The notes under the pieces are model-generated. The model was not told the origin of the DNA, did no database searches, and worked only from the letters and a program-made list of their open reading frames with translations. Source: Thermococcus sp. MV5 (GTDB lineage Archaea > Methanobacteriota_B > Thermococci > Thermococcales > Thermococcaceae). Taken from it: a stretch of DNA of 64,000 bases. The stretch spans positions 248,001 through 312,000 of the forward strand of contig NZ_SNUE01000002.1 of assembly GCF_012027425.1 (NCBI RefSeq), read 5' to 3'. A program made the translations under genes and the position numbers. Below are positions 1,473 through 17,690 of this stretch, piece by piece (within the stretch, counting starts at the first letter, position 1; every line of letters begins with the position of its first letter).

Positions 1473-1473
1473 T

Positions 1474-2442
1474 TCACATCACCTCCACCCATATTAAGAG
1501 TAGACCTAGCAAGGCTATTATGTTCACGTAAACCCAGAATAACCTTGAAGCTTGTTCAATTCTGAATCTTGCGAAAGATGTTCTAACTAAAGTCACTGCA
1601 GATATGTAGAATAACAGTACTTTGAATAAGAACCACAAGCCCTCAGCTATATAGAGAACGGGTCCTGAGAGGTTTAGACCAAATAAGTAACTGAGCGTAA
1701 ATGGTATGAAAAGAACCACTTCTATTGCTATCATTGCAAAGCCCCTTACTGCGTCTGAGAGATAGAATAAAGCGAGGTTTCTTCCACTGTACTCAGCGAG
1801 CATACCTTCAGCTATTTCTGTTTCTGCTTCAGCTATATCAAATGGAAGCTTCGCAAGCTCTGCAGGAGTCACCCAAAGGAATGCTATTAGAAGTAAGAAA
1901 ACTCCCAATCCTCCCAATGGACCTACAATAGTCCATACAGGCGTGGAAGCTATAGTGCTTAGTGAAAAGCTCTTGTATATTAGAGCAAACCCCGTTATTA
2001 CTATTGCAAATGGCATTTCGTAACTCATCATTAAGACCATTTCTCTCTGTGCACCAACTGAGGAAAATGGACTTCCTGAGGCAAATCCTCCAATTGCCAT
2101 TGCAAGAGCCTGTAGCGTTAAAAGGTAGAGGATTACTACCAAATCACCATAACCTTCCAAAGGTGCCTTAATAATGCCAAAGGGGATGTAGAGGAGAAGT
2201 GTCATTGAGGATGCGAGGGCTAAAACTGGCATTGCATTGAAGATCCATTTTACAGCATTTGCTGGAACTACAGTTTCTTTAAGAAGTAACTTTCCAACAT
2301 CCCAGAATGGCTGTCTTATTGGAGGTCCTATCCTTGATGTCATTCTCGCAGAGACTCTCCTATCAATACCTTTGTAAACTAGTCCAAGAAATACCCCAAT
2401 AAGCGGCATCCCTACTGCATAAAAGATAGTTTCAGGGGTCAC
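1474..2442 (-). CDS. Second Mbh-type complex, membrane anchor subunit M (NuoH-like)
   Basis: This 322-residue protein has about eight membrane segments and matches the NuoH/MbhM family. Recognisable blocks are R-x-G-P-P-x-x-Q-P-F near residues 37-46 and the conserved acidic loop A-E-A-E-T-E-I-A-E-G near residue 205, which in complex I relatives lies near the quinone/ion-coupling region. It anchors the hydrogenase arm to the membrane and is thought to couple electron transfer to ion movement. The start is a GTG that overlaps the TGA of subunit L as GTGA, which implies translational coupling. The family is certain; the coupling ion is inferred from Mbh. Confidence 0.93.
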   Translation of the reverse strand: MTPETIFYAVGMPLIGVFLGLVYKGIDRRVSARMTSRIGPPIRQPFWDVGKLLLKETVVPANAVKWIFNAMPVLALASSMTLLLYIPFGIIKAPLEGYGDLVVILYLLTLQALAMAIGGFASGSPFSSVGAQREMVLMMSYEMPFAIVITGFALIYKSFSLSTIASTPVWTIVGPLGGLGVFLLLIAFLWVTPAELAKLPFDIAEAETEIAEGMLAEYSGRNLALFYLSDAVRGFAMIAIEVVLFIPFTLSYLFGLNLSGPVLYIAEGLWFLFKVLLFYISAVTLVRTSFARFRIEQASRLFWVYVNIIALLGLLLIWVEVM

Positions 2443-3686
2443 CTTCTCACCCCCAGTTCTTTTTCTAACATCCTTGTTTTTTCGATGGCCCTCTTGTGAA
2501 TGTAAGAGTAATCCAGCATTTTGCCTGTTGAATCTTTTACAACCGCTACTCTATCATTACAGCACATACATGGATCAATGTATGCTACCACAACTGGGAT
2601 ATCTGCTACTTCAGCTCCTAAGAGACAATACCCCCAACTGTTGATATTGTTGTAACTTGGTGCTACAACTTTCCAAACTGATGGCCCATCTCTAGTTCCA
2701 TCATATCTGAAGTAATGTATAACTTCACCTCTTGGAGCTTCATAGGCACCTATTCCCTCTCCTTCTGTTTTCTTGATTTTGTTCAAAAGGGCGATATAGT
2801 TAGGAATGGCCAGTATCCTTCCTTCAGGAAGGTTGTCGATACAATATTCTATTATATCCAGACTCTGTTCTATCTCATAAATTCTAACCATAGTAACGTC
2901 ATAAGCGTCTCCTCTAGCTTCACCCACAATGTCCTGGGGTACCACTGCCTTTACGTCTATATCTGCATAAGCATCAAAAGGAATATCTTGTCTGATATCC
3001 ATCCTTAACCCGGCAGCCCTTGCTGTTGGGCCCACGAGATTTAATTTAAGAGCCATGTCCTTTGGAACCTGTGCCACCCCCCTAGTCCTCGCTTTATACA
3101 CTGGATCAGATAGGAAAACTTCTTTCATGTGTTCAGTGAATTCCCAGTAATATGTTATCATATCCCTCAGGGCCTTTATGTGACTCTCTTTCAGATCTCT
3201 CCTTACTCCGCCTATCATGTACATGGAGTAATTTATTCTGTTTCCGGTAATGAGCTCTAAGACATCTAGAACTTTTTCTCTTCCTTTCCACGTCCAGAAG
3301 AGTAGAGAGTCAAAACCTATTTCGTGGGCTATAACTCCAAGCCAGAGGATGTGGGAGTGTATTCTTTCAAGTTCCGCTATTATAGGTCTTATGTATTGAG
3401 CTCTATGAGGAGCCTCAATTCCAAGAGCTTTTTCACTGCCTATGACAAACGCATATGGGTGAGATATTGAGCATATCCCGCATATTCTCTCTGAGAGATA
3501 GAGAGTTTGTATTGCGTTCCTCTTCATACCCATGTACTCTATTCCTCTGTGGGCAAAACCTCTCTTTACATCAACTTTTACTATCTTTTCCCCCTCAACC
3601 TCTGCTTCAACCCTAATTGGCTCCTTTAAAGCAGGATGAATTGGGCCAATAGGAACATAATAAGTTGTTTTAGCCACTTTGCTCAC
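2439..3686 (-). CDS. Second Mbh-type complex, [NiFe]-hydrogenase-type large subunit L
   Basis: This 415-residue catalytic subunit keeps both nickel-binding motifs: R-I-C-G-I-C (C69, C72) and D-P-C-M-C-C-N-D-R (C373, C376). An additional cysteine (C375) sits between the last two. All four ligands of a [NiFe] site are therefore present, unlike sulfur-reducing Mbx/Mbs relatives, in which I recall the site being degenerate. It is clearly distinct from the classical MbhL at 10868-12160: the N-terminus, the segment after the first motif (S-I-S-H-P-Y-A-F instead of S-F-S-H-N-H-T-Y) and the C-terminus all differ. The listed GTG overlaps the end of subunit K. A second GTG three codons later is better spaced from GAGGTG and could be the real start. 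Proton reduction is the likely activity, but the physiological partner is unknown. Confidence 0.92.
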   Translation of the reverse strand: MSKVAKTTYYVPIGPIHPALKEPIRVEAEVEGEKIVKVDVKRGFAHRGIEYMGMKRNAIQTLYLSERICGICSISHPYAFVIGSEKALGIEAPHRAQYIRPIIAELERIHSHILWLGVIAHEIGFDSLLFWTWKGREKVLDVLELITGNRINYSMYMIGGVRRDLKESHIKALRDMITYYWEFTEHMKEVFLSDPVYKARTRGVAQVPKDMALKLNLVGPTARAAGLRMDIRQDIPFDAYADIDVKAVVPQDIVGEARGDAYDVTMVRIYEIEQSLDIIEYCIDNLPEGRILAIPNYIALLNKIKKTEGEGIGAYEAPRGEVIHYFRYDGTRDGPSVWKVVAPSYNNINSWGYCLLGAEVADIPVVVAYIDPCMCCNDRVAVVKDSTGKMLDYSYIHKRAIEKTRMLEKELGVRR

Positions 3687-4230
3687 CTCGCTCTTCTCTT
3701 ATCTCTTTAACGCTTTTGTGAGTGTGTTTAATCATGTCATCAACACCATATTCGTCTCTTCTCCAGGGGTACTTTCCTTCGGGCCAATCGTCCGGCAAGA
3801 AAAGATGTCTCTTGTTCTTAAGGCCATCAAATTCAACCCCTAGCATTTCCCTGATTTCCCTCTCGTTAGTTTCAGCTCCTATCATAAGATCCGTTATTGT
3901 AGGTAGAATGAGCTCGTTCTTTGGAAGGTCAAATTTTATAATTATGCTCACCTCACCCCAAGGATGCTCGTGGAAAAGCCCAAATGAATAAATCATCCGT
4001 ATAGATTCTCCAATGTCTTCACCAGTTATGAAGTGTAAGTGGGGGTATTCTATCTTGAATATTGCTTCAATTGCCCTCCTGAAGGCACTCCTGTCTATCT
4101 CCATCCAAACCTCTTTATACGTTCTGGGCTTCTTGACTCCTGTCTTATATTCTTTGATCTCATAGTCTAGTATAGCATCTCCAAGCTCTTCTTTTAATCT
4201 ATCAAAGATCTCCTCAGCAGTTAATGTCAT
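3670..4230 (-). CDS. Second Mbh-type complex, subunit K (NuoC-like)
   Basis: The 186-residue product is the NuoC/30-kDa-type subunit of the hydrogenase arm. The family signature E-R-E-I-R-E-M-L-G-V-E-F-x-G (about residues 123-136) is followed by R-H-L-F-L-P-D-D-W-P-E-G-x-Y-P-W-R, the conserved C-terminal block of these proteins. It has no cofactor of its own and holds subunits L and J together. The ATG start overlaps the stop of subunit J by four bases, and its 3' end overlaps the L gene. Assignment rests on the motif and operon position. Confidence 0.92.
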   Translation of the reverse strand: MTLTAEEIFDRLKEELGDAILDYEIKEYKTGVKKPRTYKEVWMEIDRSAFRRAIEAIFKIEYPHLHFITGEDIGESIRMIYSFGLFHEHPWGEVSIIIKFDLPKNELILPTITDLMIGAETNEREIREMLGVEFDGLKNKRHLFLPDDWPEGKYPWRRDEYGVDDMIKHTHKSVKEIREERGEQSG

Positions 4231-4673
4231 TCTTCCTTCCCCTCCAATTGTTTTTCAAGCTTCTCAAGTTTAAGCCAAGCTTTCACCACTGCATCTATTA
4301 TGGCCTCTGGCCTCGGAGGGCAGCCTGGAACATAGACATCTACTGGAATTATTTCGTCTATTGGACCAACTATATTGTATGAGTCATAGAAAACTCCTCC
4401 ACTGGTTCCACAGTTCCCTATCACTATCACTGCTTTTGGGTCTGGCATTTGCTCATAGACACGTCTTAGCTTGTCAGCAAAGTCCCTAGGAATTGCTCCC
4501 GTTACCAAAAGCACGTCAGCGTGCCTTGGACTCCCAACGAGTTTTATTCCAAATCTTTCTACGTCATATCTGGGGGTTAATGCTGCAATTATCTCAATAT
4601 CACATGCGTTACATGATCCTCCTGAGGCATGAAAAACCCAAAGAGAACGCTTAAAATTAGTTAGTTTCCCCAT
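4227..4673 (-). CDS. Second Mbh-type complex, hydrogenase small subunit J (NuoB-like)
   Basis: This 148-residue subunit binds the proximal [4Fe-4S] cluster. The ligands visible are S-C-N-A-C (C21, C24), G-N-C (C88) and G-C-P-P-R-P (C118), the NuoB/group 4 hydrogenase pattern. The start was set at the ATG preceded by GGAGGGGTG at good spacing. An upstream ATG would add five residues, M-E-G-C-N, and lies inside the end of subunit I. Electrons pass from subunit N through this cluster to the [NiFe] site in subunit L. Confidence 0.93.
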   Translation of the reverse strand: MGKLTNFKRSLWVFHASGGSCNACDIEIIAALTPRYDVERFGIKLVGSPRHADVLLVTGAIPRDFADKLRRVYEQMPDPKAVIVIGNCGTSGGVFYDSYNIVGPIDEIIPVDVYVPGCPPRPEAIIDAVVKAWLKLEKLEKQLEGKEE

Positions 4674-4674
4674 A

Positions 4675-5016
4675 TTACACCCCTCCAATTAAGATGAATG
4701 TTATTATAGCTCCAACTCCTAAGTACCACAAGATATAGTCCCTTATGTCTCCCGTATGCATGGTTTGAAGTACAGTGTAATACCCTTTTAGAGCCTCTAT
4801 GAATCCCCAATAAATATCACCTGCTTTTACCTGGACTTTTTCCTTTGTTGGTTCAATGTTACCACTTAAGTAAGGTTTCACCTGATCGCTTTCCTTCTTA
4901 TATGATGGGTTACCTCTGGAATAAATGAGGTAGGCAACTATTGTAAAGAGTACCAGGAATATCAGCCAGAGCAGAGGGTTCCAAAATCCAGATGGAGTTG
5001 TTAGTGTAAAGCTCAT
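4675..5016 (-). CDS. Second Mbh-type complex, linker subunit I
   Basis: This 113-residue protein has one membrane helix near residues 12-32, a polar middle and a second helix at the C-terminus. It matches MbhI by position and by the block L-S-G-N-I-E-P ... W-G-F-I-E-A-L-K-G-Y-Y, comparable with I-S-G-E-D-Q and W-G-L-V-R-G-I-N-R-M in the paralogue at 13153-13500. In Mbh this subunit connects the antiporter module to the hydrogenase module. Its presence, together with a single copy of subunit H, marks the cluster as Mbh-type, not Mbx/Mbs-type. The ATG overlaps the stop of subunit H by four bases. Confidence 0.85.
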   Translation of the reverse strand: MSFTLTTPSGFWNPLLWLIFLVLFTIVAYLIYSRGNPSYKKESDQVKPYLSGNIEPTKEKVQVKAGDIYWGFIEALKGYYTVLQTMHTGDIRDYILWYLGVGAIITFILIGGV

Positions 5017-6566
5017 GCTAAACCACCCCAGCTATGATATTGTGCAAAGTTAATTAACGCATCAACTGCTGGATACACAAGTTTATCCAATACTATGTTC
5101 GGGAATAGACCGAATAGTATACACAATACTGCCAAAATGAGCATTGCTATAACCATGGGCGTCGGAACCTCTCGCTTATCTTGGAATTTCTCTAATGGTG
5201 GTCCAAGGAAGGCTGATGCAAAAACCTTAACGAATGAAGCCAATGTCAAGACACTAGTTACCATAGCGAATACTGTAAGAAGGGGGTTTAACCTATAGGA
5301 AGTCTCATAAATTAGGAGCTTACTTGCAAATCCATTAAATGGTGGTAAACCAGATATTGCGGCAGCTCCGACTATGAAACTTATTGTTGTTATTGGCATT
5401 TTTCTTGCTAGACCTCCCATTTCATTGAGGTTCCTAGTTCCAGTAACATAAAATAGTGCTCCCGCCGTCATAAGAAGTAAGCTCTTGTAAATGATGTGGT
5501 TAATTATATGGAAAACTCCTCCTGCCATTGCGTCCCTTCCAAATTCTGCGAGCTTAGATGGGTCATGCAACACCGTCAATCCAACACCTACGCCCAAAAG
5601 CATGTAACCTGTCTGGGAGATAGCGTGATAGCTCATCAACCTCTTAACGTCTTTTTGCACAAGAGCCATTGTAACTCCAATGAACATTGTAAGCACTCCA
5701 AGGATGGACATTATCCAGCCTACCCGAGCAAGGTCTATTACTATGTTCGCAAAGAGTGTAAAACTGACCCTAAAGAGAGCGTAAAGGCTTGCATATGTTG
5801 CTACCAACAAGGGTGGGTTTATTCCAGCCGGTACTTCAGTATAAGCATCAGGCACCCAGTAATGCATTGGAACTGCACCGCACTTCATTGCAAATGACGT
5901 AAATAACAAGCCAAGGGCTATCATGTCTACCATGTTGAATGAGATATTTTTCGCTATGTATGCTAAGTTTAGGTTTCCATACTGACCATAGAGTATAGCT
6001 ACTGCAAATAGGACCATAAGAGAAGCCACAGCACTAACGATGAGATACTTTATTCCAGCCTCACTTGCTTCCCCACGGTAGTTTCTAAAGCCCACTAAGG
6101 CCGAACCTGCTATTCCCGCTATTTCTAAGAACACAAACAAGTTGAATAGATCTCCAGTAAGCACCATGCCCAAAATTCCGGTTTCTAAGAGCATCAGCAA
6201 TGCATAGTATTTTTCCAATCCTGTCTCTTTTTTAACATGTGTATATGAATATATAGCTCCAACAAAGCTCATTAAAGTGGCAGAAATTGCCATAAAGGCT
6301 CCCATTGCATCTACTTCAAACATTATTCTTATCGGAACTGCGTAACCAGAAGGCAGTACTATAGATGGTTTGTCTGCTCCAAAGACATATACCATTATCC
6401 CATTAGTGACTACTTCCTTTGCCAGCAAGAGGGAGAGAATCACAGTACTGCCAGTGATCACGACGGCCCACATCGAGACTCCTTTGTAATGTTTTTTGAA
6501 GAGTGGTGCTATAAACGCTCCAAAGAGTGGAACCGCTACCATCAAAGCAGGTAAGTGCTCAATCAT
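5013..6566 (-). CDS. Second Mbh-type complex, antiporter subunit H (MrpD/NuoN-like)
   Basis: This 517-residue, roughly 14-helix protein belongs to the proton-conducting MrpD/NuoL/M/N family. The signature around L-F-V-F-L-E-I (about residues 146-152) contains the key helix-5 glutamate. K-C-G-A-V-P-M-H-Y-W-V-P-D-A-Y carries the conserved helix-7 lysine followed by the H-x-W-x-x-D-A motif. V-Q-K-D-V-K-R-L-M-S-Y-H-A-I-S-Q-T-G is the family's second conserved block. It is the main ion-pumping subunit of the complex. It is a single copy, with no H' duplicate as in Mbx. It overlaps both neighbours by four bases. Confidence 0.94.
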   Translation of the reverse strand: MIEHLPALMVAVPLFGAFIAPLFKKHYKGVSMWAVVITGSTVILSLLLAKEVVTNGIMVYVFGADKPSIVLPSGYAVPIRIMFEVDAMGAFMAISATLMSFVGAIYSYTHVKKETGLEKYYALLMLLETGILGMVLTGDLFNLFVFLEIAGIAGSALVGFRNYRGEASEAGIKYLIVSAVASLMVLFAVAILYGQYGNLNLAYIAKNISFNMVDMIALGLLFTSFAMKCGAVPMHYWVPDAYTEVPAGINPPLLVATYASLYALFRVSFTLFANIVIDLARVGWIMSILGVLTMFIGVTMALVQKDVKRLMSYHAISQTGYMLLGVGVGLTVLHDPSKLAEFGRDAMAGGVFHIINHIIYKSLLLMTAGALFYVTGTRNLNEMGGLARKMPITTISFIVGAAAISGLPPFNGFASKLLIYETSYRLNPLLTVFAMVTSVLTLASFVKVFASAFLGPPLEKFQDKREVPTPMVIAMLILAVLCILFGLFPNIVLDKLVYPAVDALINFAQYHSWGGLA

Positions 6567-6928
6567 CCTCTCAACCTCCTTACTCGTGTAATATCTAAGG
6601 TTCCATAGTGCTTGTAGATGTTAACTGCAAAGGCAAGCATCAACGCAGTTACTGCAACACCTATGACAATGCTCGTAAGAGTCAGTGCTTGAGGAGTCGG
6701 AAGAACCATTCTTCCCACAGCTTCCCGTGGTGCTTGAGTGTAAATTGGCACATATCCACCTTTGATGTACCCTACAGCTACAATGAACATGTTCACAGCG
6801 CCTTCTAAGATTTCGATTCCAATAACTACTTTTATGAGATTCCGCTTGAAGCCAATAGTGTAAAATCCTAACGCAAGTAGGATTGCAACTACAATAAATG
6901 GAAAGTTCACAAAGATGTTACCATTCAT
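6563..6928 (-). CDS. Second Mbh-type complex, antiporter subunit G (MrpC/NuoK-like)
   Basis: The 121-residue product has three membrane helices and matches MrpC/MbhG, a NuoK homologue. It shows K-R-N-L-I-K-V-V-I-G-I-E-I-L-E-G-A-V-N (about residues 28-46), with the conserved glutamates of this family, and L-P-T-P-Q-A-L-T-L-T-S-I-V-I-G-V-A (about 76-92). The C-terminus ends in R-V-R-R-L-R-G, as does the paralogue in the other cluster. It overlaps the 3' end of subunit F by 11 bases, and its own stop overlaps the start of H. Confidence 0.93.
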   Translation of the reverse strand: MNGNIFVNFPFIVVAILLALGFYTIGFKRNLIKVVIGIEILEGAVNMFIVAVGYIKGGYVPIYTQAPREAVGRMVLPTPQALTLTSIVIGVAVTALMLAFAVNIYKHYGTLDITRVRRLRG

Positions 6929-7385
6929 CTCTCTCCCTCCTTAGAATCAAGAAGAAGATTAGTATGATGCTTGTAAGACCAGCCAAGACTTTTGTTCCAA
7001 CGAAGATGTTAAGGTATGAGAGGGTTCCTCCAGTATTCAAGTATCCGGGATTTATCCCTTTTGGTGTGGGGGCACCAAAGAGGAATCCACTGTTCGCTAT
7101 TACATTTTTCAGGAAGGTATAACCCATTAGTCCTAAAAGGCCGATGCCCAAAAATCCAAGTGCACCAATGCTCTCCAGTTGAGTCAAGGGAGTTTTTTCA
7201 AAGAGTTCTTGGACTTTGTCTTTGCTATTAGCCACGATCAACAACGCTAAACCACTTGCAAAAACTGCTCCTCCCTGAAAACCACCTCCTGGGGTTAAAT
7301 GTCCATGGAGGATTATATACGCTCCAAATACAAGTATCAACGGAGCTAGAAATCTAGTAGTTGTCCTTATGATCGTAGTGGTCAT
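6918..7385 (-). CDS. Second Mbh-type complex, antiporter subunit F (MrpB-like)
   Basis: This 155-residue protein has four membrane helices and corresponds to MrpB/MbhF. The signature [14 protein letters not shown] (residues 27-40) is diagnostic of the MnhB domain. It forms part of the antiporter module that exchanges Na+ and H+. The ATG overlaps the stop of subunit E by four bases, consistent with coupled translation. Confidence 0.93.
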
Positions 7386-7657
7386 TTCCCTCTCCCTCCA
7401 TACTGTCTCAGTGCCATTAAAACTCCAGCAACTGCAGTAAACAAGACTGTGGCTTCACCAAGAGTATCAAAACCCCTGTAGTCAAACACAACGCTTGTAA
7501 CGACATTATTGGCCGACGCTTCTTCTTGAGCGTGATCTACAAAGTATGCATCCATTTCCATATGGGGAGGTTCTCCAAAAGGCCTTATACTTATAACCGC
7601 TGCAAACAGGAATAGCGTAAATGCCAAGAATGCAAAAAGTCCCAGTGCTCTCCTCAT
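7382..7657 (-). CDS. Second Mbh-type complex, subunit E (MrpA C-terminal/MbhE-like)
   Basis: This 91-residue protein has a membrane helix at each end and matches MbhE, which corresponds to a C-terminal piece of MrpA. The block [22 protein letters not shown] (about residues 49-70) is the family signature and is nearly identical in the paralogue at 15896-16189. It is flanked by four-base overlaps on both sides. Confidence 0.92.
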
Positions 7658-7917
7658 TCTACCACCTCCTCATCGGTGGTGTTTCGTATAGCAAGAAGGT
7701 ACATCGCAGTTGTGAGTCCTGCTCCAACACCAGCCTCTGCTATTGCTACATCCGGTGCTTGTAGAATATAGAACTCCACAGAAAGAGCCAAGCTAAAAAC
7801 TGCCATTGCAATTACTGCTGAGATTAAGTTCTTGAACCTAATAGCTGCTATTGAACTTCCAATTAAAGCTATGGCTATTAGAACTTGAATTGCCCAGAAA
7901 AATGTTTCAGGGTTCAT
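7654..7917 (-). CDS. Second Mbh-type complex, subunit D (MrpA-type DUF4040 piece)
   Basis: This 87-residue, three-helix membrane protein carries the block [23 protein letters not shown], diagnostic of MbhD, the DUF4040-type part of MrpA. With subunit E it reconstitutes the MrpA region present as one polypeptide in bacterial Mrp antiporters. The A-P-D-V-A-I-A-E-A motif contains the acidic residues thought to take part in ion translocation. Coupled by four-base overlaps to C and E. Confidence 0.92.
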
Positions 7918-8264
7918 AGTCTCCCCTCCAATTCGTCTATTACCGCACCATACGGTCGTATACCTGATTTTCTAGCCGCTCTACCCAATGCATGAGCTCC
8001 TACTGGATTTGTTAAGACCAAGAATATGACCACAAGCGCTGAATGAATTCCCATTGTAATCCATGCAGTATCATGGCTAAGTCTCCAGTTGTAAATTGAA
8101 TAAACGATCGCACTGAGTACTATGAAAATAGTACCGAACGTGGTACATTTTGTAGAAGCGTGAATCCTTGTATAAACATCAGGAAATCTAAGGATCCCCA
8201 CGCTTGCTAGCAGATTGAAACCCACTCCAATACCAAGTAAGAGTAATAATAACCACTCAATCAT
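7914..8264 (-). CDS. Second Mbh-type complex, subunit C (MrpG-like)
   Basis: This 116-residue protein has three membrane helices and matches MrpG/MbhC. The motif L-R-F-P-D-V-Y-T-R-I-H-A-S-T-K-C-T-T-F-G-T (residues 25-45) is diagnostic. The C-terminal N-P-V-G-A-H-A-L-G-R-A-A segment is also conserved. It is an accessory subunit of the Na+/H+ antiporter module. Start and stop overlap the neighbours by four bases each. Confidence 0.93.
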   Translation of the reverse strand: MIEWLLLLLLGIGVGFNLLASVGILRFPDVYTRIHASTKCTTFGTIFIVLSAIVYSIYNWRLSHDTAWITMGIHSALVVIFLVLTNPVGAHALGRAARKSGIRPYGAVIDELEGRL

Positions 8265-8536
8265 GCTAATCCCACCCTCTTCTTTACTAGATATCTGGCT
8301 ATGTAAAGGGTTGCAATATAACTAAGAACTGCGTAAACTAGAGCAACATCGATCATGATTGCTTGTTTTGTGATAATTCCGTAAAGAACCATGGCTCCAG
8401 CAGTTGTTGTTGTTAAAGCATCTAATGCCACTGCTCTATCAGGAATGGTTGGACCGATTAACATTCTTATCATGGTTAATGTAGCTGAAACAAATAATAG
8501 TACCATTGCACTCATAAATATACTCTCAGGGGTCAT
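8261..8536 (-). CDS. Second Mbh-type complex, subunit B (MrpF-like)
   Basis: This 91-residue, three-helix protein matches MrpF/MbhB, with the conserved G-P-T-I-P-D-R-A-V-A-L-D block. I chose the ATG that overlaps the stop of subunit A as ATGA and follows AAGGAGG. An upstream in-frame ATG would add 13 residues inside the A gene and has no better signal. It is part of the antiporter module. Confidence 0.92.
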   Translation of the reverse strand: MTPESIFMSAMVLLFVSATLTMIRMLIGPTIPDRAVALDALTTTTAGAMVLYGIITKQAIMIDVALVYAVLSYIATLYIARYLVKKRVGLA

Positions 8537-9036
8537 TCCGCAATCCTCCTTGCCCATTTTGGTAAATACCCACAAAGCTCCTCAGGAGTTGGTTTCTCTT
8601 TTCCAGGAGGCACATTAATCCAGTGAACATAGAAATTACCCTCTTCATCAATTTCAAGTGTAAACGTTCCTGGTGTTAGGGTTATTGAATTTGCTAGAAG
8701 CGTTCTGCTTTCATCTCTAGTCAAATCCGGAGAAATTTTGACAATTCCTGGCCTTATCTTGCCTGTAATGACTCTATAAGCAACATCAAAGTTTGCTTTT
8801 GCCATGGCATAGAAAAAGGGTCCTAGTGCATATACAATAAAAAACACCCATCTTTTTGGATTAAAGAGGTAATCCAGTCTTTCATCCATTATATTTCTTG
8901 TAACATAGCCTATCATAGCTGCTATTATAATGCCCGCCACTAGTTCTTCTGGACTCCATAGTAAAACACTGCCTGAACCTGCAGTCAAAACAAGGTATAC
9001 AATTAACGACCAAAGGAAAGATGTTGCAAAGGACAT
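8533..9036 (-). CDS. Second Mbh-type complex, subunit A (MrpE-like)
   Basis: This 167-residue protein has N-terminal membrane helices and a C-terminal cytoplasmic domain and matches MrpE/MbhA. The segment A-N-F-D-V-A-Y-R-V-I-T-G-K-I-R-P-G-I-V-K (about 80-99) and L-A-N-S-I-T-L-T-P-G-T-F-T-L-E (about 114-128) are diagnostic. It is the first gene of the operon. The ATG follows GATGAGGTGAGAAA, and a promoter with a SurR motif lies about 80-115 bp upstream. Confidence 0.93.
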   Translation of the reverse strand: MSFATSFLWSLIVYLVLTAGSGSVLLWSPEELVAGIIIAAMIGYVTRNIMDERLDYLFNPKRWVFFIVYALGPFFYAMAKANFDVAYRVITGKIRPGIVKISPDLTRDESRTLLANSITLTPGTFTLEIDEEGNFYVHWINVPPGKEKPTPEELCGYLPKWARRIAE

Positions 9037-9115
9037 TTTCTCACCTCATCTTTAGGTTCTAAACCTTTTGAGAGCATATTTCAACCTAATTCCATTACTC
9101 GCTTAGCTAAATTCC

Positions 9116-9149
9116 ATTAAATACGTTTCTTTAACGAAAGGTTAAAAAC
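9116..9149 (-). promoter_or_regulatory. Promoter of the second Mbh-type operon with an exact SurR motif
   Basis: Read on the minus strand, 9149-9133 is GTTTTTAAC-CTTTC-GTT, an exact match to the extended SurR recognition pattern GTTn3AACn5GTT known from Pyrococcus furiosus. It is followed at 9123-9116 by TATTTAAT, a TATA-like box about 80 bp upstream of the first gene. SurR is the redox-sensitive regulator that activates hydrogenase genes when sulfur is absent. A site directly upstream of the TATA box fits activation. The motif match is seen directly; binding is inferred. The rest of the 9037-9315 gap is AT-rich, with T-runs after the upstream operon that could terminate transcription. Confidence 0.7.
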
Positions 9150-9315
9150 ATGAAATTTGACAAACATAAAAGTAATAAAGCTTTACATAAAATAGAACAT
9201 TAAGCTGCAGGAATAGACTAAATTGTTCAATAATGCAAAAAATAATAATTTTGATCCTCAAAAATGTACAAACTCTAAAAGAATACTCCAAAAGAATTAT
9301 AATAATAGAAAAAGG

Positions 9316-9885
9316 TCACTCTTCGTATTCTTCTATGGCACCAAACTTACACACTGTAGCACACACACCACATCCAACACACTTATTTGGATCGATTTTG
9401 TGAACTACTCTAGGTGCTCCTTCAATGGCATTTTGAGGGCAGTTTCTTGCACATAGAGTGCAGCCTTTACATTTTTCTGCAATTATGCGATATTTCTTTG
9501 TCTTCCCTCCCTGTTGAGCGACCATCTCCTCGATTTCCTCTTCTTTAAGCCATTTTAAGTTATCATCATATTTATTGTAGGTAGCCAATAAAAACTCATT
9601 GCTCATCTCTAGGGCACTTACGGGACATACATCCACACATTGCTGACAGAAGACACATCTCCCTAACCAAAGCGTTACTTTCTTTATTTCAGGGACGTAT
9701 TCAAATACTCCTGCTGGACATACGTTCATACACAATTTACACCCGATACACTTGTCAACGTGATATACGAGTTTTCCCCTAAAACCTTCAGGAATTGACA
9801 CAGGCTCACTTTTGGGGAAAGGATTTGTAGCTGGTTTTTTAAAGAGGTTTCTTAAGACTACTGAGAGTGTTGGAGGAACTTTCAT
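9316..9885 (-). CDS. mbhN: Membrane-bound hydrogenase subunit N with four [4Fe-4S] motifs
   Basis: The first 115 residues are a normal MbhN with two motifs (C46-C49-C52-C56 and C77-C80-C83-C87). The last 60 residues add two further ferredoxin motifs, C139-C142-C145-C149 and C169-C172-C175-C179. This tail resembles the 2[4Fe-4S] C-terminal domain of NuoF/HydB-type flavoproteins. MbhN of P. furiosus, as I remember it, ends after the second motif. The protein takes electrons from ferredoxin for the proton-reducing complex, so the extra clusters may extend the electron wire or provide another docking site. ATG overlaps the M stop by four bases. It is the last gene of the mbh operon. Confidence 0.95.
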   Translation of the reverse strand: MKVPPTLSVVLRNLFKKPATNPFPKSEPVSIPEGFRGKLVYHVDKCIGCKLCMNVCPAGVFEYVPEIKKVTLWLGRCVFCQQCVDVCPVSALEMSNEFLLATYNKYDDNLKWLKEEEIEEMVAQQGGKTKKYRIIAEKCKGCTLCARNCPQNAIEGAPRVVHKIDPNKCVGCGVCATVCKFGAIEEYEE

Positions 9886-10871
9886 GCAATCACCCCCAAG
9901 ATGTCTATTGCTAGCAATATTGCCCCTACTATGCTTGCAGGCAGTATTCTGCTCCAGAATAAATTGACAGCTTGAGTAACTCTAAGTCTTCCTGTAATGG
10001 CCCTGAATAGGCTCATGCTAATAAAAAGTACCGTAAAGACTTTTATTGTGTGAAAGATTAAATCCACTAGCATAGCTCCCATACCACTTATTCCTAAGTA
10101 CTGACTGAGGCCCCACGGGAAAAATATCGCCACTACTAAACTGGCGCTTGCAAACTCTTTTAACGAACTGCTTAGTTTAAACAATGCCAAGTATCTACCA
10201 CTGTATTCTGCCATAGGCCCTTCTGCAACTTCTGTTTCCGCCTCAGGAATATTGAAATAACCAACTTCAATCTCACTTGCGAGCCAAAAGATAAACACTA
10301 TTAAGAGAACCAAGCTACCCACAATTGTCAATGGAGTTCCAATTTCCCATATATTATGCTGGTAAAGTGTCTCAAGGCTAAAAGGCTTTTCTACATCAAG
10401 TTTGGCCAAACGCCACAATATTACAAAAAGGCCAAGCATCATCGGTGCTTCTCTCGACGCTAGCATAATAACCTCCCTTTGAGCCCCTATTTGAGCGTAT
10501 GGAGAACCTGAGCTCACTGCACCAATTACTCTTATGAAAGCTATTAATGCAAGTAAATAAATAAATACAACTACATCTCCCTTTGTGGCAAGAATTGGGC
10601 CAAATCCAATAGGGGTGTATGCTAAAAGGGCTATTGATGCAGCTAATGCTAGGATTGGAGAGACTTCAAACATCTTATTGGAATCCCTTGGGATTATTGA
10701 TTCCTTACTAGCAAGTTTTAAGAAATCGTAGAAAGGTTGAAGGAGGGGAGGGCCCACTCTTCTTTGCATTCTGGCAACTAATTTTCTATCCAAACCATCC
10801 CATAGAAGCGAAACGAAAGAGACGTAAAGATAGACACCAATTAATCCCACAGTAGTATACAGAACGTTCAT
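9882..10871 (-). CDS. mbhM: Membrane-bound hydrogenase membrane anchor subunit M
   Basis: This 329-residue, roughly eight-helix NuoH homologue contains R-V-G-P-P-L-L-Q-P-F-Y-D-F near residue 35 and the acidic A-E-T-E-V-A-E-G-P-M loop near residue 210. It fixes the hydrogenase arm in the membrane next to the ion-translocating module. I chose the ATG that overlaps the L stop as ATGA and follows GGAGGTG. An upstream ATG would add six residues. Confidence 0.93.
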   Translation of the reverse strand: MNVLYTTVGLIGVYLYVSFVSLLWDGLDRKLVARMQRRVGPPLLQPFYDFLKLASKESIIPRDSNKMFEVSPILALAASIALLAYTPIGFGPILATKGDVVVFIYLLALIAFIRVIGAVSSGSPYAQIGAQREVIMLASREAPMMLGLFVILWRLAKLDVEKPFSLETLYQHNIWEIGTPLTIVGSLVLLIVFIFWLASEIEVGYFNIPEAETEVAEGPMAEYSGRYLALFKLSSSLKEFASASLVVAIFFPWGLSQYLGISGMGAMLVDLIFHTIKVFTVLFISMSLFRAITGRLRVTQAVNLFWSRILPASIVGAILLAIDILGVIA

Positions 10872-12160
10872 AGTCTGACACCTCCACATATACCTCCTAC
10901 TGGTTCAGGCTTTGCCTTTATATCCGGGTTAATTTCTTTTGTCTTTTCTATTGAGGCCTTGAGCAGATCTTTTTCAGCCAATATCTTCTTTTTACCTGTT
11001 TTTGAGTCTATGATAGCAACTCTATCGGTACAGCTCAAGCATGGGTCAATTGATGCTATTGCTACCGGCACATCTGCAAGTTGCTCTCCAACTAATGCCC
11101 TTGCAACTGCAAATAAGTTTGGAAAAGTAGGTTCTCTTGCCTTCCACTTTGCCGGGCCGTCTGTCCCAGGATTTGCCCTCACATAATGTATGGTCTCCCC
11201 TCTAGGGGCCTCATACCTCCCAATTCCCATGCCATTCGCTTTTTTCAGCTTAACCAGAGCTACATTGTCCTTTGGAAATGTTTTTATTTTCCCTTCAGGC
11301 ATTTGATCAAAAGCTCGCTCTATGATCTCCATGCTTTGCCAAAGTTCGCCAACTCTAACAACCATTCTGTCAAAAACATCCCCCTTTATTACACCAGTGA
11401 ACTCCTTTGGAGTTATGGGTTTAACTCCTAAATCAGGGTAAACGCCAAGTTGTTCATTATATCTTATATCTTTCTTAATTCCACTTCCTCTTGCAGTTGG
11501 ACCTTGGGCACTATATTCAATTGCAATTCTCTTTGGAATGACTCCCGCATCCCTTAAACGTGCCTCTACTGTGGGATCATAAAGAAAGATCTCCTCTATC
11601 TTTGGCATTACTTCCTTGCGATAATATTTTATCATCTCAAGAATTGCTCTTTTATGCTTCTCTTCTATGTCCCTTCTAACACCGCCAATTGTATTCATAC
11701 CATAGTTTACCCTGTTTCCACCAATTGCCTCTAAGATGTCCATTACTCTTTCCCTAGCAAGCCAACTTAAGTGAAGAACAGTGTCATATCCGATTGCATG
11801 TCCAACGACTCCGAGGTTGAGCAAGTGGGAATGAATCCTCTCCAGCTCTCCTATGATTGCCCTAATGTATTCAGCTCTCTCAGGCACTTCTATACCTGCC
11901 ATTTCCTCAACGGCCCTAGTATATGTGTGATTATGGGAAAATGAGCATATTCCACAAATTCTTTCAACTAGATAAAGCAATTGAATATAGTTTCTTCTCA
12001 TAGCAATCCATTCAAGTCCCCTTAAATTATAACCCAACTTAACATCAACGTTTATTATACGCTCTCCATCAAGGGTTATGATAAACTTCTCTGGCTCCTC
12101 TAATGCTGGATGAATTGGACCAATCGGGATTTTAACCCAGTATTCAACTCTGTCATTCAT
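10868..12160 (-). CDS. mbhL: Membrane-bound hydrogenase catalytic large subunit L
   Basis: This 430-residue [NiFe] subunit is closely similar over its length to the MbhL of P. furiosus as I recall it (E-Y-W-V-K-I-P, I-I-T-L-D-G-E-R-I-I-N-V-D-V-K-L-G-Y-N-L-R-G). The nickel ligands are C69 and C72 in R-I-C-G-I-C and C374 and C377 in D-P-C-L-S-C-T-D-R. It evolves H2 from protons using electrons from ferredoxin, and the complex stores the energy as an ion gradient. The ATG overlaps the end of subunit K. The C-terminal tail after the second motif is about 50 residues. Confidence 0.97.
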   Translation of the reverse strand: MNDRVEYWVKIPIGPIHPALEEPEKFIITLDGERIINVDVKLGYNLRGLEWIAMRRNYIQLLYLVERICGICSFSHNHTYTRAVEEMAGIEVPERAEYIRAIIGELERIHSHLLNLGVVGHAIGYDTVLHLSWLARERVMDILEAIGGNRVNYGMNTIGGVRRDIEEKHKRAILEMIKYYRKEVMPKIEEIFLYDPTVEARLRDAGVIPKRIAIEYSAQGPTARGSGIKKDIRYNEQLGVYPDLGVKPITPKEFTGVIKGDVFDRMVVRVGELWQSMEIIERAFDQMPEGKIKTFPKDNVALVKLKKANGMGIGRYEAPRGETIHYVRANPGTDGPAKWKAREPTFPNLFAVARALVGEQLADVPVAIASIDPCLSCTDRVAIIDSKTGKKKILAEKDLLKASIEKTKEINPDIKAKPEPVGGICGGVRL

Positions 12161-12681
12161 TGTGACCCCTCCTTCTTGAGTTTGTAAGGATGTCCAGCAT
12201 TTTTCACCATCTCTGGAGTTATGCCAGTCTCATCAAGTCTTAATGGGTAGATCCCTTCTGGGAAGTCGTCAGGAAGGAATAATCTTCTTGGATCAGGTAT
12301 GCCTTCAAAGACTATTCCAAGGAACTCCTGATTCTCTCTTTCATATGGTACCGAACTGGGAAATACGTCTCCAAGAGAGGATATCTTGGGGTCTTCTTTT
12401 GGACAAGTCGTCGTTACAACTACTGATAGACTTGGTTCCTCTTCACAGAAAAGCTCTAAGTGATATGTAGCACTTAGGTAGTCTCCCCTATCCTCACCAA
12501 TTATTATTGAGAACTGAGCATGTGGGTCAATTTCTTGAAGATACTTCATGAGGCCTTTGAAGTTCTCCCTATCAATCTCTATCCAGATTCTTTTCCTAGG
12601 ATAGGGCGTTTTAGTCTGTGAGATATGAGTTTCAACTTCAAATCTCTCTTTAATTTTTTTGATTAATTCTTCTGGAGTCAT
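12157..12681 (-). CDS. mbhK: Membrane-bound hydrogenase subunit K (NuoC-like)
   Basis: This 174-residue structural subunit shows the NuoC signature E-R-E-N-Q-E-F-L-G-I-V-F-E-G (about 115-128) and the tail R-R-L-F-L-P-D-D-F-P-E-G-I-Y-P-L-R. It binds L and J in the cytoplasmic arm and carries no cofactor. Four-base overlaps join it to J and L. Confidence 0.93.
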   Translation of the reverse strand: MTPEELIKKIKERFEVETHISQTKTPYPRKRIWIEIDRENFKGLMKYLQEIDPHAQFSIIIGEDRGDYLSATYHLELFCEEEPSLSVVVTTTCPKEDPKISSLGDVFPSSVPYERENQEFLGIVFEGIPDPRRLFLPDDFPEGIYPLRLDETGITPEMVKNAGHPYKLKKEGSQ

Positions 12682-13148
12682 TCTTTCTCACCTTCTATCT
12701 TTTTTAGAAGTTTTTCCAAACCCAAAACTACACCATGAAGAATCGCTTCCGGTCTTGGTGGGCATCCTGGAATAAACACATCTACCGGAATATGCTTATC
12801 AAGTGGTGCATTCGTGAAAGGACTCTCAAAAAATACACTCCCTCCCGTCGGACAAGCACCAATAGCAATAACAACCTTTGGGTCTGGAGTTTGTTCATAA
12901 ATCAACTTAACTCTCTCAAGACTCTGATCAGTAATCGGCCCAGTTACAAGTAAAACGTCTGCATGTCTTGGTGTCCCTACTAGTTTAACACCAAACCTCT
13001 CCGCATCATAACGAGGAGTTAATGCAGCAATTATCTCAATATCACATCCGTTACATGAACCACTATTAACATGAAAGACCCAAGGTGATCTTCCAAGATA
13101 CTTACAAAGTTTTGAGATCTTCTTTTCAAGCATTTCTCTCTCACCCAT
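12678..13148 (-). CDS. mbhJ: Membrane-bound hydrogenase small subunit J
   Basis: This 156-residue NuoB-type subunit has proximal [4Fe-4S] ligands C32 and C35 (S-C-N-G-C), C99 (G-A-C) and C129 (G-C-P-P-R-P). I set the start at the ATG after GGGGGTGAAACA, directly behind the stop of subunit I. An upstream ATG inside mbhI would add ten residues with no ribosome binding site. It relays electrons to the [NiFe] centre in MbhL. Confidence 0.94.
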   Translation of the reverse strand: MGEREMLEKKISKLCKYLGRSPWVFHVNSGSCNGCDIEIIAALTPRYDAERFGVKLVGTPRHADVLLVTGPITDQSLERVKLIYEQTPDPKVVIAIGACPTGGSVFFESPFTNAPLDKHIPVDVFIPGCPPRPEAILHGVVLGLEKLLKKIEGEKE

Positions 13149-13152
13149 TGTT

Positions 13153-13500
13153 TCACCCCCGAATAACCATAAGCCCAAGCAGTATCGCTACAGTAATTAA
13201 TAAATAACTAACATAATCAGTAAGCAAACCGGTGTGTTCTCTTCTAAAAGTCAAAAACATTCTGTTTATTCCCCTAACTAGTCCCCACATGACATGTCTC
13301 CCTGTAAAATATCCTCTAAAATGTTCAAATTGGGGGATAACCTTATCTTGGTCTTCTCCACTTATAAAGATCTTAGTACCATCTCCTACCTTTCTAGTCC
13401 CAGCACTTGCATTCTCAGCCCATTTCATGAGTAAATAACTAATCAGCAGACCAATAACAAAGGCATAAATAAAGTAAAGAGCGTCCCAATAACCAAACAT
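13153..13500 (-). CDS. mbhI: Membrane-bound hydrogenase linker subunit I
   Basis: This 115-residue protein has an N-terminal helix, a central polar stretch with I-F-I-S-G-E-D-Q and W-G-L-V-R-G-I-N-R-M, and a C-terminal helix. It matches MbhI, which joins the antiporter and hydrogenase modules. Identification rests on position between H and J and on the central block shared with the paralogue at 4675-5016. Confidence 0.88.
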   Translation of the reverse strand: MFGYWDALYFIYAFVIGLLISYLLMKWAENASAGTRKVGDGTKIFISGEDQDKVIPQFEHFRGYFTGRHVMWGLVRGINRMFLTFRREHTGLLTDYVSYLLITVAILLGLMVIRG

Positions 13501-13501
13501 C

Positions 13502-15088
13502 TCACACCCCTCCTATGAACTTAATGAGTGCCATTATGTATTCCCCTTTGAGCTGCTCAAGCATTTTTGCCACTGGTAACATGACTCTCTCATTTATTTG
13601 CCAAGGTAAGAGGCCCATTAGAATTATAATCACTACTAAAAACAGCATTGGGATAAGCATTGTTTTTTCTGGCTCTGTAGCAGTTTTCACTCGTTCACTT
13701 TCAATTCCTAAAAAGGTGAATAATACTCTTGTATAAGCTGCTAATGAAAACACAGTACCGACCACTGCGATCACTGCCAAAATTGGATTATACATTGCAG
13801 AGCTTTCATAGATGAGCCACTTGCTTGCAAAACCATTTAGCGGAGGAAGTCCTATTATTGCCGCAGCACCTATTAAAAATGAGAGAGTAGTAAGTGGCAT
13901 TCTTCTTGCTAATCCACTGAGTTCGTTTAGATTTTTTGTTCCAACTTGATGGATCACTGCACCGGCCACAAAAAAGAGAAGTGCCTTTATGACTGCGTGA
14001 TTAACTATATGATATACAGCGCCTGTTAAAGCTATTTCCCCAGCCTTCTCCCCGTATGCAACTACTCCAATTCCAATTCCAAGAAGAATATATCCAATTT
14101 GGCCGACACTTGAGAAAGCAAAAAGCCTTTTCATATCTGTTTGAATAACTGCCATTGCATTTCCAACAATTAACGTTAAGCAACCGAAAAATATTATTGC
14201 CCATCCCAGTGTGTTCACGTCAATAGAAGGCGCACCCAAGGCCTTAAGGTATTCATGCAACCCTGGATTAAACACTCCAAATACTATCCTAGCTATAGCA
14301 TAAACACCACCCACTTTAATAACAAGGCCAGAGAGCATTGCTGAAATAGAGCTTGGAGCTGCTGGATGAGCATCAGAAAGCCACATGTGAACTGGAACTG
14401 CACCACTTTTAAATAATAACCCACCAATAAGAAAGGCAAGGGCAACTCTACTTACGAGAGTCGGATTCTCCGCTACTTTTACTGCTAGATACGCCATTGT
14501 GAGTGTGCCATACTGCCCGTATAAGAGTGCAATTCCTAATAAGATAAAGGAGCTTGCAAGAGATCCAACAAACATGTATTTAATTCCCGCTTCGATTCCT
14601 TCCCAAGTGTCATTTCTGAATGCAACCAACACATAGCTTGCTATACTCATTATTTCGAGGAAGACATAGAAGTTGAAAATATCCCCAGTGATTACGATAC
14701 CCAGCATTCCAAGCTCCAAAACGAGTACTAGAGTGTAGTATTTGTCTAACCCACTATCATCTTTCATGTATCCTAAAGAGTATACTATCGCTAGAAAACT
14801 TACAAAAGTCACTGTTAATGCAAGTAATGCCCCAAACAGGTCAACTTCCCATATTATCCTAATTGGGAAGTTAACTCCCTTTCCAATTGGGGTCACATCA
14901 CCCAACGTATAGAGAAGTATCTCATTGCTCTTCCAAATACTGTAAAATATCCTTGCAGCAATTGCAAACGTAAACCCGCTGATAATTACTGCCCAGTATT
15001 CTCTAACTTTTCTTCCTAACAAACCAAGTATTGGCATAGAGAATGCCCCAAATAATGGAGTTATTATGAGCCATGGAAGGGCATTCAT
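13502..15088 (-). CDS. mbhH: Membrane-bound hydrogenase antiporter subunit H (MrpD-like)
   Basis: This 528-residue, roughly 14-helix protein of the MrpD/NuoN family contains N-F-Y-V-F-L-E-I (helix-5 glutamate, about residue 149), K-S-G-A-V-P-V-H-M-W-L-S-D-A-H (helix-7 lysine) and I-Q-T-D-M-K-R-L-F-A-F-S-S-V-G-Q-I-G. It is the ion-conducting subunit of the complex. ATG overlaps the end of subunit G; the next gene follows after one base. Confidence 0.95.
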   Translation of the reverse strand: MNALPWLIITPLFGAFSMPILGLLGRKVREYWAVIISGFTFAIAARIFYSIWKSNEILLYTLGDVTPIGKGVNFPIRIIWEVDLFGALLALTVTFVSFLAIVYSLGYMKDDSGLDKYYTLVLVLELGMLGIVITGDIFNFYVFLEIMSIASYVLVAFRNDTWEGIEAGIKYMFVGSLASSFILLGIALLYGQYGTLTMAYLAVKVAENPTLVSRVALAFLIGGLLFKSGAVPVHMWLSDAHPAAPSSISAMLSGLVIKVGGVYAIARIVFGVFNPGLHEYLKALGAPSIDVNTLGWAIIFFGCLTLIVGNAMAVIQTDMKRLFAFSSVGQIGYILLGIGIGVVAYGEKAGEIALTGAVYHIVNHAVIKALLFFVAGAVIHQVGTKNLNELSGLARRMPLTTLSFLIGAAAIIGLPPLNGFASKWLIYESSAMYNPILAVIAVVGTVFSLAAYTRVLFTFLGIESERVKTATEPEKTMLIPMLFLVVIIILMGLLPWQINERVMLPVAKMLEQLKGEYIMALIKFIGGV

Positions 15089-15447
15089 CCTCTCAACCTC
15101 CTTAGTTTGCTCACATCAAGAGTTCTGTAGTGCTTATATGCATTAATTGTCAAAGCCATTGCAAGGGAAAGAACACAAACTCCAATAACAATGCTGGTAA
15201 GCACTAAAGCTTGGGGAATCGGCCCTACCATTGGAACACCTTCTAATGTTTCATATCCGGTGTATATTGGGGCTGTTGGCAAAATGCCATTCTCTAAGCG
15301 ATAACCCAGACTTATAAGCAATAAATGAATTCCTGCATCAACTAAATTTAACGCCAGAATTAGCTTAATGAGATTCCTCTTGTACAAAAATGCATAGATG
15401 CCCATGAATATCATCAGGAATGCAGTCACAAATTGTAAGGGTATCAC
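15085..15447 (-). CDS. mbhG: Membrane-bound hydrogenase subunit G (MrpC-like)
   Basis: This roughly 120-residue, three-helix NuoK-type subunit carries K-R-N-L-I-K-L-I-L-A-L-N-L-V-D-A-G-I-H and I-P-Q-A-L-V-L-T-S-I-V-I-G-V. I chose the GTG that overlaps the F stop as GTGA and follows AGGAGGTGG. Another GTG three codons upstream is possible but sits on the Shine-Dalgarno. It ends in L-R-R-L-R-G like its paralogue. Confidence 0.92.
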   Translation of the reverse strand: MIPLQFVTAFLMIFMGIYAFLYKRNLIKLILALNLVDAGIHLLLISLGYRLENGILPTAPIYTGYETLEGVPMVGPIPQALVLTSIVIGVCVLSLAMALTINAYKHYRTLDVSKLRRLRG

Positions 15448-15899
15448 TTTTTCCACCTCCTGAACAATGCAATTGCAAATAACGCACTAACTAATCCTGT
15501 GTATACTTTTAGACCTACAGCTAAGTTCATTATGGGCAAGTATCCCGCCGAAAGAAGGCTTCCAGGTTCTCCATTGAAAACCGGTCCTTCACGCCACAGG
15601 GTGTTATAAAAGAATACGACACCGAAACCAAGCATACCCATTGCTAGAAACACCAATCCACCGATACCTTCAAGAGCAGAGTATAACGTCTTGTTAATCC
15701 TGTTCTTTGTCTCGCTAAGACCAAAAGCTATTAAGAAAAGAACTCCTGCACCCGCTACAGTAGCACCACCTTGGAATCCTCCTCCGGGTGTGAGGTGCCC
15801 ATGAGCAACCACATAAGCACCAAATATTCCAATAAGAGGTATGGTAACTCTCGCCATTGTTTTAACTATAAGACCCATGTCATTATTTTGGCTGTTCAT
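15444..15899 (-). CDS. mbhF: Membrane-bound hydrogenase subunit F (MrpB-like)
   Basis: This 151-residue, four-helix MnhB-domain protein shows [14 protein letters not shown] near residue 37. The start chosen is the ATG after GGAGGGGAGAGGA, overlapping the E stop as ATGA. An upstream ATG would add five residues, M-E-G-R-G, which are the ribosome binding site translated. It is part of the Na+/H+ antiporter module. Confidence 0.93.
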   Translation of the reverse strand: MNSQNNDMGLIVKTMARVTIPLIGIFGAYVVAHGHLTPGGGFQGGATVAGAGVLFLIAFGLSETKNRINKTLYSALEGIGGLVFLAMGMLGFGVVFFYNTLWREGPVFNGEPGSLLSAGYLPIMNLAVGLKVYTGLVSALFAIALFRRWKK

Positions 15900-17571: not shown

Positions 17572-17690
17572 TTTTCCCACCTCAACTTTTGGTTTACATC
17601 CCAGTCCTCACCTATTTTTCTATTTATCGATATTAAATTCAATTGTTTCTTTTAAAAGGGTTTTGTAAAGGGCTAAATTAACAACAAAGG

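What the first reader, a model, noticed from the sequence alone, without database searches (positions are those of the whole stretch)
9116..9149. Exact extended SurR motif in front of the divergent Mbh-type operon
GTTTTTAAC-CTTTC-GTT on the minus strand fits GTTn3AACn5GTT without mismatch and lies nine bases from a TATA-like box. It suggests that the second complex belongs to the sulfur-response regulon like the first.
Basis: partly seen in the sequence, partly recalled or inferred. Interest (0 to 1): 0.6.

Follow-up and report, generated by a model that had tools for sequence, protein, structure and literature searches.

The report
Sulfur-regulator site before second hydrogenase operon
The sequence in front of this archaeon's second hydrogen-making enzyme operon is very probably a real binding site for the sulfur-sensing regulator SurR, held in place in almost all related species examined, and the matching site has already been listed in print for a close relative.

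Summary
GTTTTTAACCTTTCGTT lies at 9133-9149, minus strand, nine bases before TATTTAAT and 96 bp before the ATG (9036) of a 14-gene Mbh2-type hydrogenase operon (1014-9036), which is in tandem with canonical Mbh1 (9316-17580).

The pattern alone proves little: 26 genome hits against 28 for the reversed pattern. Position and conservation carry the case. The full motif stands 95-97 bp upstream in 34 of 35 orthologous promoters; fixed bases depart in 1 of 315 cells, spacers in 56 of 280. The genome encodes SurR, and 10 of 11 intergenic hits fall at hydrogenase, hyp, mbs-like, CoA-disulfide-reductase and surR/pdo genes.

The orthologous site is in print for Thermococcus barophilus (Mrp-Mbh2, long motif at 96 bp; PMC12162507): a new member of a known kind. 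Added here: the wide conservation, a second SurR site before the start codon, a layout unlike Mbh1, and a near-invariant TTTGTCAAAT of unknown role.

Caveat: reported sulfur responses of Mbh2 are mixed; in T. barophilus mbhII still fell after sulfur addition in the surR mutant. Binding and transcription start are untested.

The parts
9133..9149 (-). Upstream extended SurR site GTTTTTAACCTTTCGTT (core GTTTTTAAC 9141-9149)
   Evidence: conserved 95-97 bp before the start codon in 34 of 35 promoters
9116..9123 (-). TATA-like box TATTTAAT
   Evidence: ATTTA (9118-9122) invariant in 35 of 35
9126..9129 (-). GAAA, part of the presumed BRE
   Evidence: invariant in 35 of 35; GAAAn3ATTTA in 35 of 35
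9048..9064 (-). Second, downstream SurR-like site GTTTAGAACCTAAAGAT (core GTTn3AAC intact, third triplet one mismatch), 11 bp before the ATG, in the presumed 5' UTR
   Evidence: core in 34 of 35, full long motif in 27 of 35
9155..9164 (-). TTTGTCAAAT, near-invariant palindromic element upstream of the SurR site, role unknown; its last three bases AAT would make the SurR site nearly symmetric
   Evidence: one departing cell in 350; AATn5GTTn3AACn5GTT in 32 of 35
1014..9036 (-). Mbh2-type operon, 14 ORFs (MrpE-like first gene 8533-9036; L subunit 2439-3686; Fer4 last gene 1014-1472)
9316..17580 (-). Canonical Mbh1 operon upstream, same strand (first ORF as called from GTG 17580; by the ribosome-binding-site context ATG at 17571 is likelier)
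17704..17720 (+). Extended SurR site GTTTCCAACCAAAAGTT in front of the Mbh1 operon
   Evidence: long motif upstream, on either strand, in 49 of 61 Mbh1 promoters read

Best explanation
The sequence is a functional binding site for reduced SurR. Bound just upstream of the BRE/TATA box, SurR helps recruit the transcription machinery to the Mbh2 operon when elemental sulfur is absent; sulfur oxidises the SurR CxxC, SurR leaves the DNA and transcription drops. A second SurR site just before the start codon may damp or fine-tune output. Shown here: sequence, position, conservation, presence of SurR, coherent set of genome hits. Inferred from published work on other promoters and from T. barophilus: binding, activation, sulfur response. 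The role of the downstream site is a guess.
For: Exact motif; 34 of 35 orthologous promoters with ten different versions of the motif, core departing in 1 of 315 cells and spacers in 56 of 280; core promoter GAAAn3ATTTA in 35 of 35; SurR encoded here and above cut-off in 91 of 94 family genomes. The 11 intergenic hits fall at nine places: Mbh2, Mbh1, CoA-disulfide reductase, an Mbs-like MrpE gene (2 hits), HypF (2 hits), ShyB, SurR/Pdo, HypA and one FmdE gene (families). Outside Thermococcaceae, 0 of 6 genomes with a related complex have SurR above cut-off and 0 of 5 promoters with 250 bp upstream have the motif. T. barophilus Table 2 lists the site, and RT-qPCR shows mbhII lower in a partial surR mutant in most conditions.
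Against: The pattern itself is not enriched in the genome (26 against 28). Counting only ORFs of at least 60 or 100 aa adds one or two intergenic hits (L002, L005) at genes that are not known targets to me. Sliding the same nine-column comb along the promoter alignment gives four other offsets of 162 with 0 or 1 departures, so other conserved blocks exist and conservation alone does not name the protein. In T. aciditolerans mbhL2 transcript is about ten-fold lower and unaffected by sulfur. In T. barophilus mbhII rose threefold in the surR mutant at 70 MPa, and after sulfur addition it still decreased in that mutant, at 0.5 and 2 g/L, so SurR may not be the only carrier of the sulfur signal. 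In Palaeococcus pacificus MBH2 showed no obvious change. The 35 promoters are related, so their count is not 35 independent events.
Confidence: 0.88

Rival explanations
1. SurR binds, but the two sites together (upstream and in the 5' UTR) keep the operon low and nearly sulfur-blind under ordinary growth; Mbh2 is a reserve enzyme switched on by another cue such as loss of Mbh1 or pressure.
For: Downstream core in 34 of 35 promoters; T. aciditolerans mbhL2 inert to sulfur and pressure but raised when mbhL1 is disrupted; in T. barophilus mbhII rises in the surR mutant at 70 MPa with sulfur; upstream plus downstream sites are reported as needed for repression in some cases (PMC12162507 passage).
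Against: In this species the downstream site has lost its third triplet match (GAT); T. barophilus has both long sites and mbhII still falls in the surR mutant at 0.1 and 40 MPa with sulfur; a downstream core is also present in 21 of 61 Mbh1 promoters, so it is no mark of a silent operon.
Confidence: 0.3
2. The promoter is a composite in which an unidentified second factor binds TTTGTCAAAT next to SurR and sets Mbh2 expression.
For: TTTGTCAAAT departs in one cell of 350 across 35 promoters while neighbouring columns vary; a sulfur response of mbhII that persists in the T. barophilus surR mutant leaves room for another regulator.
Against: Of its 15 copies in the genome only one other is intergenic, so no regulon is seen; its last bases could simply extend the SurR site.
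Confidence: 0.25
3. The motif is a chance match in an AT-rich promoter.
For: Pattern count is no higher than the reversed control genome-wide; 9 of 100 window shuffles give two or more hits.
Against: Fixed position in 34 of 35 promoters with variable spacers; 10 of 5000 shuffles of the intergenic stretch.
Confidence: 0.03

Closest known systems
SurR site of Mrp-Mbh2 in Thermococcus barophilus MP (PMC12162507, Table 2, seen as passages)
   Same: Orthologous operon and position: long motif at 96 bp and a second at 11 bp before the first CDS, same strand as the operon. G086, whose SurR gene lies at 563294-563959, matches the printed SurR coordinates 563276-563965 and gives 95 and 11 bp by my count (L089).
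   Different: Here the downstream site has one mismatch in the third triplet, and the Mbh1 promoter of this genome has an exact long motif, where T. barophilus is listed with altered ones only.
SurR-activated mbh promoters of other Thermococcales
   Same: SurR motif upstream of BRE/TATA, reported as the activating position (passages).
   Different: In Mbh1 promoters read here the site is symmetric in 37 of 61 and its core lies 46-47 bp from a TATA-like box in 46 of the 47 measurable; in Mbh2 the core lies 18 bp from ATTTA in 33 of 34 and the site abuts the BRE.
MBH2 of T. aciditolerans SY113 and Palaeococcus pacificus (PMC12401011, PMC6981617)
   Same: Second MBH cluster adjacent to MBH1; in T. 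aciditolerans of low identity (average 44.5%) to T. kodakarensis MBH.
   Different: No significant or obvious sulfur response of MBH2 was reported there.

Membership tests
SurR regulon promoter (activated class) | Match to GTTn3AAC / GTTn3AACn5GTT | tested here: met
   exact, 9133-9149 minus
SurR regulon promoter (activated class) | Genome encodes SurR with the CxxC switch | tested here: met
   L025:776-1450 minus, NF047699 393 bits; C-T-E-C aligned to C-M-E-C of 2qlz
SurR regulon promoter (activated class) | Site upstream of BRE/TATA | tested here: met
   GAAAn3ATTTA downstream of the site, 35 of 35; the transcription start itself is not mapped
SurR regulon promoter (activated class) | Site conserved in orthologous promoters | tested here: met
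   34 of 35; L094 has one mismatch
SurR regulon promoter (activated class) | SurR binds in vitro or in vivo | not testable with these tools
   needs gel shift or ChIP
SurR regulon promoter (activated class) | Transcript responds to sulfur and to surR loss | not testable with these tools
   published for relatives with mixed results
Mbh (group 4 NiFe membrane hydrogenase, 14 genes) | Both CxxC nickel-ligand pairs in the large subunit | tested here: met
   RICGICS and DPCMCCNDR in P0001, aligned to 6cfw_L, E 1.6e-121
Mbh (group 4 NiFe membrane hydrogenase, 14 genes) | Mrp-type and hydrogenase modules in one 14-gene operon | tested here: met
   14 consecutive ORFs; Pfam scan of nine of them: MNHE, MnhB, Proton_antipo_M, Oxidored_q6, Complex1_30kDa, Complex1_49kDa/NiFeSe, NADHdh and Fer4 in eight; the ninth (4675-5016) has only a below-cut-off Ion_trans hit; five small ORFs not scanned
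Mbh (group 4 NiFe membrane hydrogenase, 14 genes) | Evolves H2 from reduced ferredoxin | not testable with these tools
   -

The most novel reading that the evidence does not exclude
The Mbh2 promoter is a composite switch: two SurR sites straddling the core promoter plus a dedicated second regulator at TTTGTCAAAT, kept since the ancestor of the Mbh2-bearing Thermococcaceae, that holds Mbh2 in reserve and turns it on when Mbh1 cannot carry the electron flow.
Probability: 0.2. Interest if true: 0.55.

Novelty: new member of a known kind. Interest (0 to 1): 0.32.

Why it matters
It places the second, poorly understood membrane hydrogenase of the Thermococcaceae (L subunit of this type in 40 of 94 genomes) under the same sulfur-sensing regulator as the first, by a promoter layout of its own. 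The conservation gives an exact mutational test: upstream site, downstream site and the TTTGTCAAAT element can be changed one at a time to ask why Mbh2 is reported silent in one species and SurR-dependent in another.

Tried and rejected
Chance match: rejected on conservation and position, though genome-wide pattern counts alone would not reject it. TTTGTCAAAT as a regulon-wide motif: 15 copies in the genome, 13 inside ORFs, one here, one other intergenic (L210). The longer ATTTGTCAAATT gave two hits, neither in this promoter, because this species has G in the first place. Divergent orientation of the two operons: rejected, both on the minus strand. Structure prediction and fold search were not used: nothing in the question turned on a fold.

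Selections. Of 40 genomes with a Mbh2-type L subunit (79% identity or more) I read promoters from 34 and the window; the other five (G082, G091, G053, G003, G065) were left out because their contigs end too near. For Mbh1 I took 60 loci and the window, 61 of the 86 L-subunit matches of 46-51% identity that I count; the 25 left out include contig-end fragments and some that I simply did not fetch. L085 needed its start shifted by one base for the alignment. Starts of the outgroup operons were set from the tblastn alignments; L038 has only 49 bp upstream and was not counted among the five outgroup promoters. In the FmdE side check 30 of 56 loci were held; six failed the orientation test and were dropped (one of them, L224, also shows the motif), so 24 were counted. 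The intergenic count of genome hits is 11, 12 or 13 with ORFs of at least 50, 60-80 or 100 aa.

Full report
What is there. The pattern GTTn3AACn5GTT occurs twice in the window: GTTTTTAACCTTTCGTT at 9133-9149 minus and GTTTCCAACCAAAAGTT at 17704-17720 plus. The first is followed on the minus strand by AAAGAAACG and TATTTAATGG and lies 96 bp before the ATG at 9036 of a 14-ORF operon running down to 1014. The second lies in front of another such operon, 9316-17580. Both operons are on the minus strand, in tandem.

What the operons are. The upstream one is the canonical Mbh: its large subunit matches the MbhL structure 6cfw at E 1.5e-203. The downstream one is a diverged Mbh: the same structure at E 1.6e-121, 48% identity between the two L subunits, both CxxC pairs kept (RICGICS, DPCMCCNDR), and MNHE, MnhB, proton-antiporter, Oxidored_q6, 30-kDa, 49-kDa, NADHdh and Fer4 subunits among the nine of 14 ORFs scanned. 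L subunits at 79% identity or more occur in 40 of 94 Thermococcaceae genomes, with a gap down to 51% for the next. This is the MBH2 of the literature: two adjacent MBH copies are reported for Palaeococcus pacificus, Thermococcus sp. 4557, T. sibiricus and T. barophilus (PMC6981617, passages) and for T. aciditolerans (PMC12401011, section 3.2); the latter paper counts dual MBH in 13 of 29 Thermococcus genomes (Discussion).

Is the motif more than chance. By count, no: 26 genome hits against 28 for the pattern read backwards. By place, yes: 11, 12 or 13 of 26 hits are intergenic, with ORFs of at least 50, 60-80 or 100 aa, against 4 of 28 controls each time; Fisher p 0.011 for 12 and 0.005 for 13. 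The 11 hits of the first rule stand at nine places: Mbh2, Mbh1, a CoA-disulfide reductase (the Nsr type, name recalled), an Mbs-like MrpE gene (two hits; the Mbs label is recalled, the family test says antiporter subunit E), HypF (two hits, Cas2 on the other side), ShyB, SurR/Pdo, HypA, and an FmdE-family gene. Mbh, Mbs, Nsr, SHII, SurR and Pdo appear with SurR motifs in the tables of PMC12162507 and PMC8595942 (passages); HypF and HypA as SurR targets are recalled. The two hits added by the laxer rules, L002 and L005, are not at genes I know as targets.

Conservation. I read the promoter in 34 other genomes with Mbh2 and aligned them with the window (33 distinct sequences). The full long motif stands 95-97 bp before the start codon in 34 of 35; L094 has one mismatch. 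Ten versions of the motif occur; the nine fixed bases depart in 1 of 315 cells, the eight spacer positions in 56 of 280, with the C after AAC and one T also invariant. The same comb of nine columns slid along the alignment gives four other offsets of 162 with 0 or 1 departures: they overlap other conserved stretches (the upstream element, the BRE/TATA block, the stretch before the start codon), so conservation alone does not prove SurR.

SurR. The genome encodes it (L025:776-1450 minus; NF047699 393 bits, cut-off 250; PF0095 structure 2qlz E 2e-93 with the CxxC aligned). SurR passes the cut-off in 91 of 94 family genomes. Related complexes also occur in Bipolaricaulota, Thermoplasmatota and an Aciduliprofundum bin; of six such genomes none has SurR over the cut-off, two have weak matches of 30-34 bits, and none of the five promoters with 250 bp upstream has the motif. 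These are distant relatives in metagenome bins of unstated completeness, so this is weak support.

Layout. A second SurR-like site lies 11 bp before the ATG, at 9048-9064: GTTTAGAACCTAAAGAT, core intact, one mismatch in the third triplet. Its core is kept in 34 of 35 promoters and the full motif in 27 of 35. With a start about 23 bp past the TATA box (T. kodakarensis median, PMC4247193 passage) it would lie in the 5' UTR. Mbh1 promoters differ: long motif upstream, on either strand, in 49 of 61, symmetric in 37 of 61, a downstream core within 40 nt in 21 of 61; core to TATA-like box 46-47 bp in 46 of the 47 measurable, against 18 bp to ATTTA in 33 of 34 Mbh2 promoters. In the Mbh2 site an AAT five bases before the first GTT makes it nearly symmetric in 32 of 35. 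That AAT ends TTTGTCAAAT (9155-9164), which departs in one cell of 350 and is found only once more in intergenic DNA of this genome. What binds TTTGTC is unknown.

What is already known. PMC12162507 (passages; section 3.4) lists for T. barophilus Mrp-Mbh2 two long motifs, at 11 and 96 bp, same strand as the operon. RT-qPCR there: mbhII lower in the partial surR mutant at 0.1 and 40 MPa with sulfur; lower without sulfur at 40 MPa, and at 0.1 MPa with overlapping deviations; threefold higher at 70 MPa with sulfur. Sulfur addition represses the hydrogenase genes in the parent, above all mbhI and shI; but in the surR mutant mbhII also decreased, clearly at 0.5 g/L and again at 2 g/L. So SurR bears on Mbh2 there, but a sulfur effect not carried by SurR remains possible. 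Other results against a simple sulfur response: T. aciditolerans mbhL2 is ten-fold lower than the others and unaffected by sulfur (1.28 +/- 0.06) or pressure, yet rises when mbhL1 is disrupted; in that strain mbhL1 did not respond to sulfur either (0.99 +/- 0.02). In Palaeococcus pacificus MBH2 is slightly down in the text and without obvious change in the table. My paper searches were made; the original P. furiosus SurR paper was not held.

Verdict. The site is real and the reading as a SurR site is supported at about 0.88. The direction of control (activation) is inferred from position; the strength of the sulfur response in this species cannot be told from sequence.

Noticed in passing
window 9155-9164 (minus): TTTGTCAAAT, palindromic, near-invariant in 35 Mbh2 promoters; of 15 copies in the genome only this and L210 are intergenic.
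   Followed up: partly
L019:1501-1517: Long SurR motif between divergent FmdE-family and FeMo-co-family genes; the motif recurs about 55-68 bp upstream of the FmdE gene in 20 of 24 loci counted, the window's own genome included. A candidate SurR target.
   Followed up: partly
L021:1501-1517 and L022:1501-1517: Two long SurR motifs nine bases apart between hypF and a divergent cas2 gene.
   Followed up: no
window 9316-9885 (minus): The last Mbh1 gene carries four Fer4 (PF00037) stretches in 189 aa, while the Mbh2 counterpart (1014-1472, 152 aa) has two.
   Followed up: no
L121, L122, L123, L125, L126: In five genomes of genus g5, which includes the probable T. barophilus genome, the Mbh1 promoter lacks the upstream long SurR motif while the Mbh2 promoter keeps it.
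   Followed up: partly
L038-L041, L043, L044, L046: Complexes related to Mbh2 (45-70% identity of L) occur in an Aciduliprofundum bin, Bipolaricaulota and Thermoplasmatota bins, without SurR motifs in the five promoters that could be read.
   Followed up: partly
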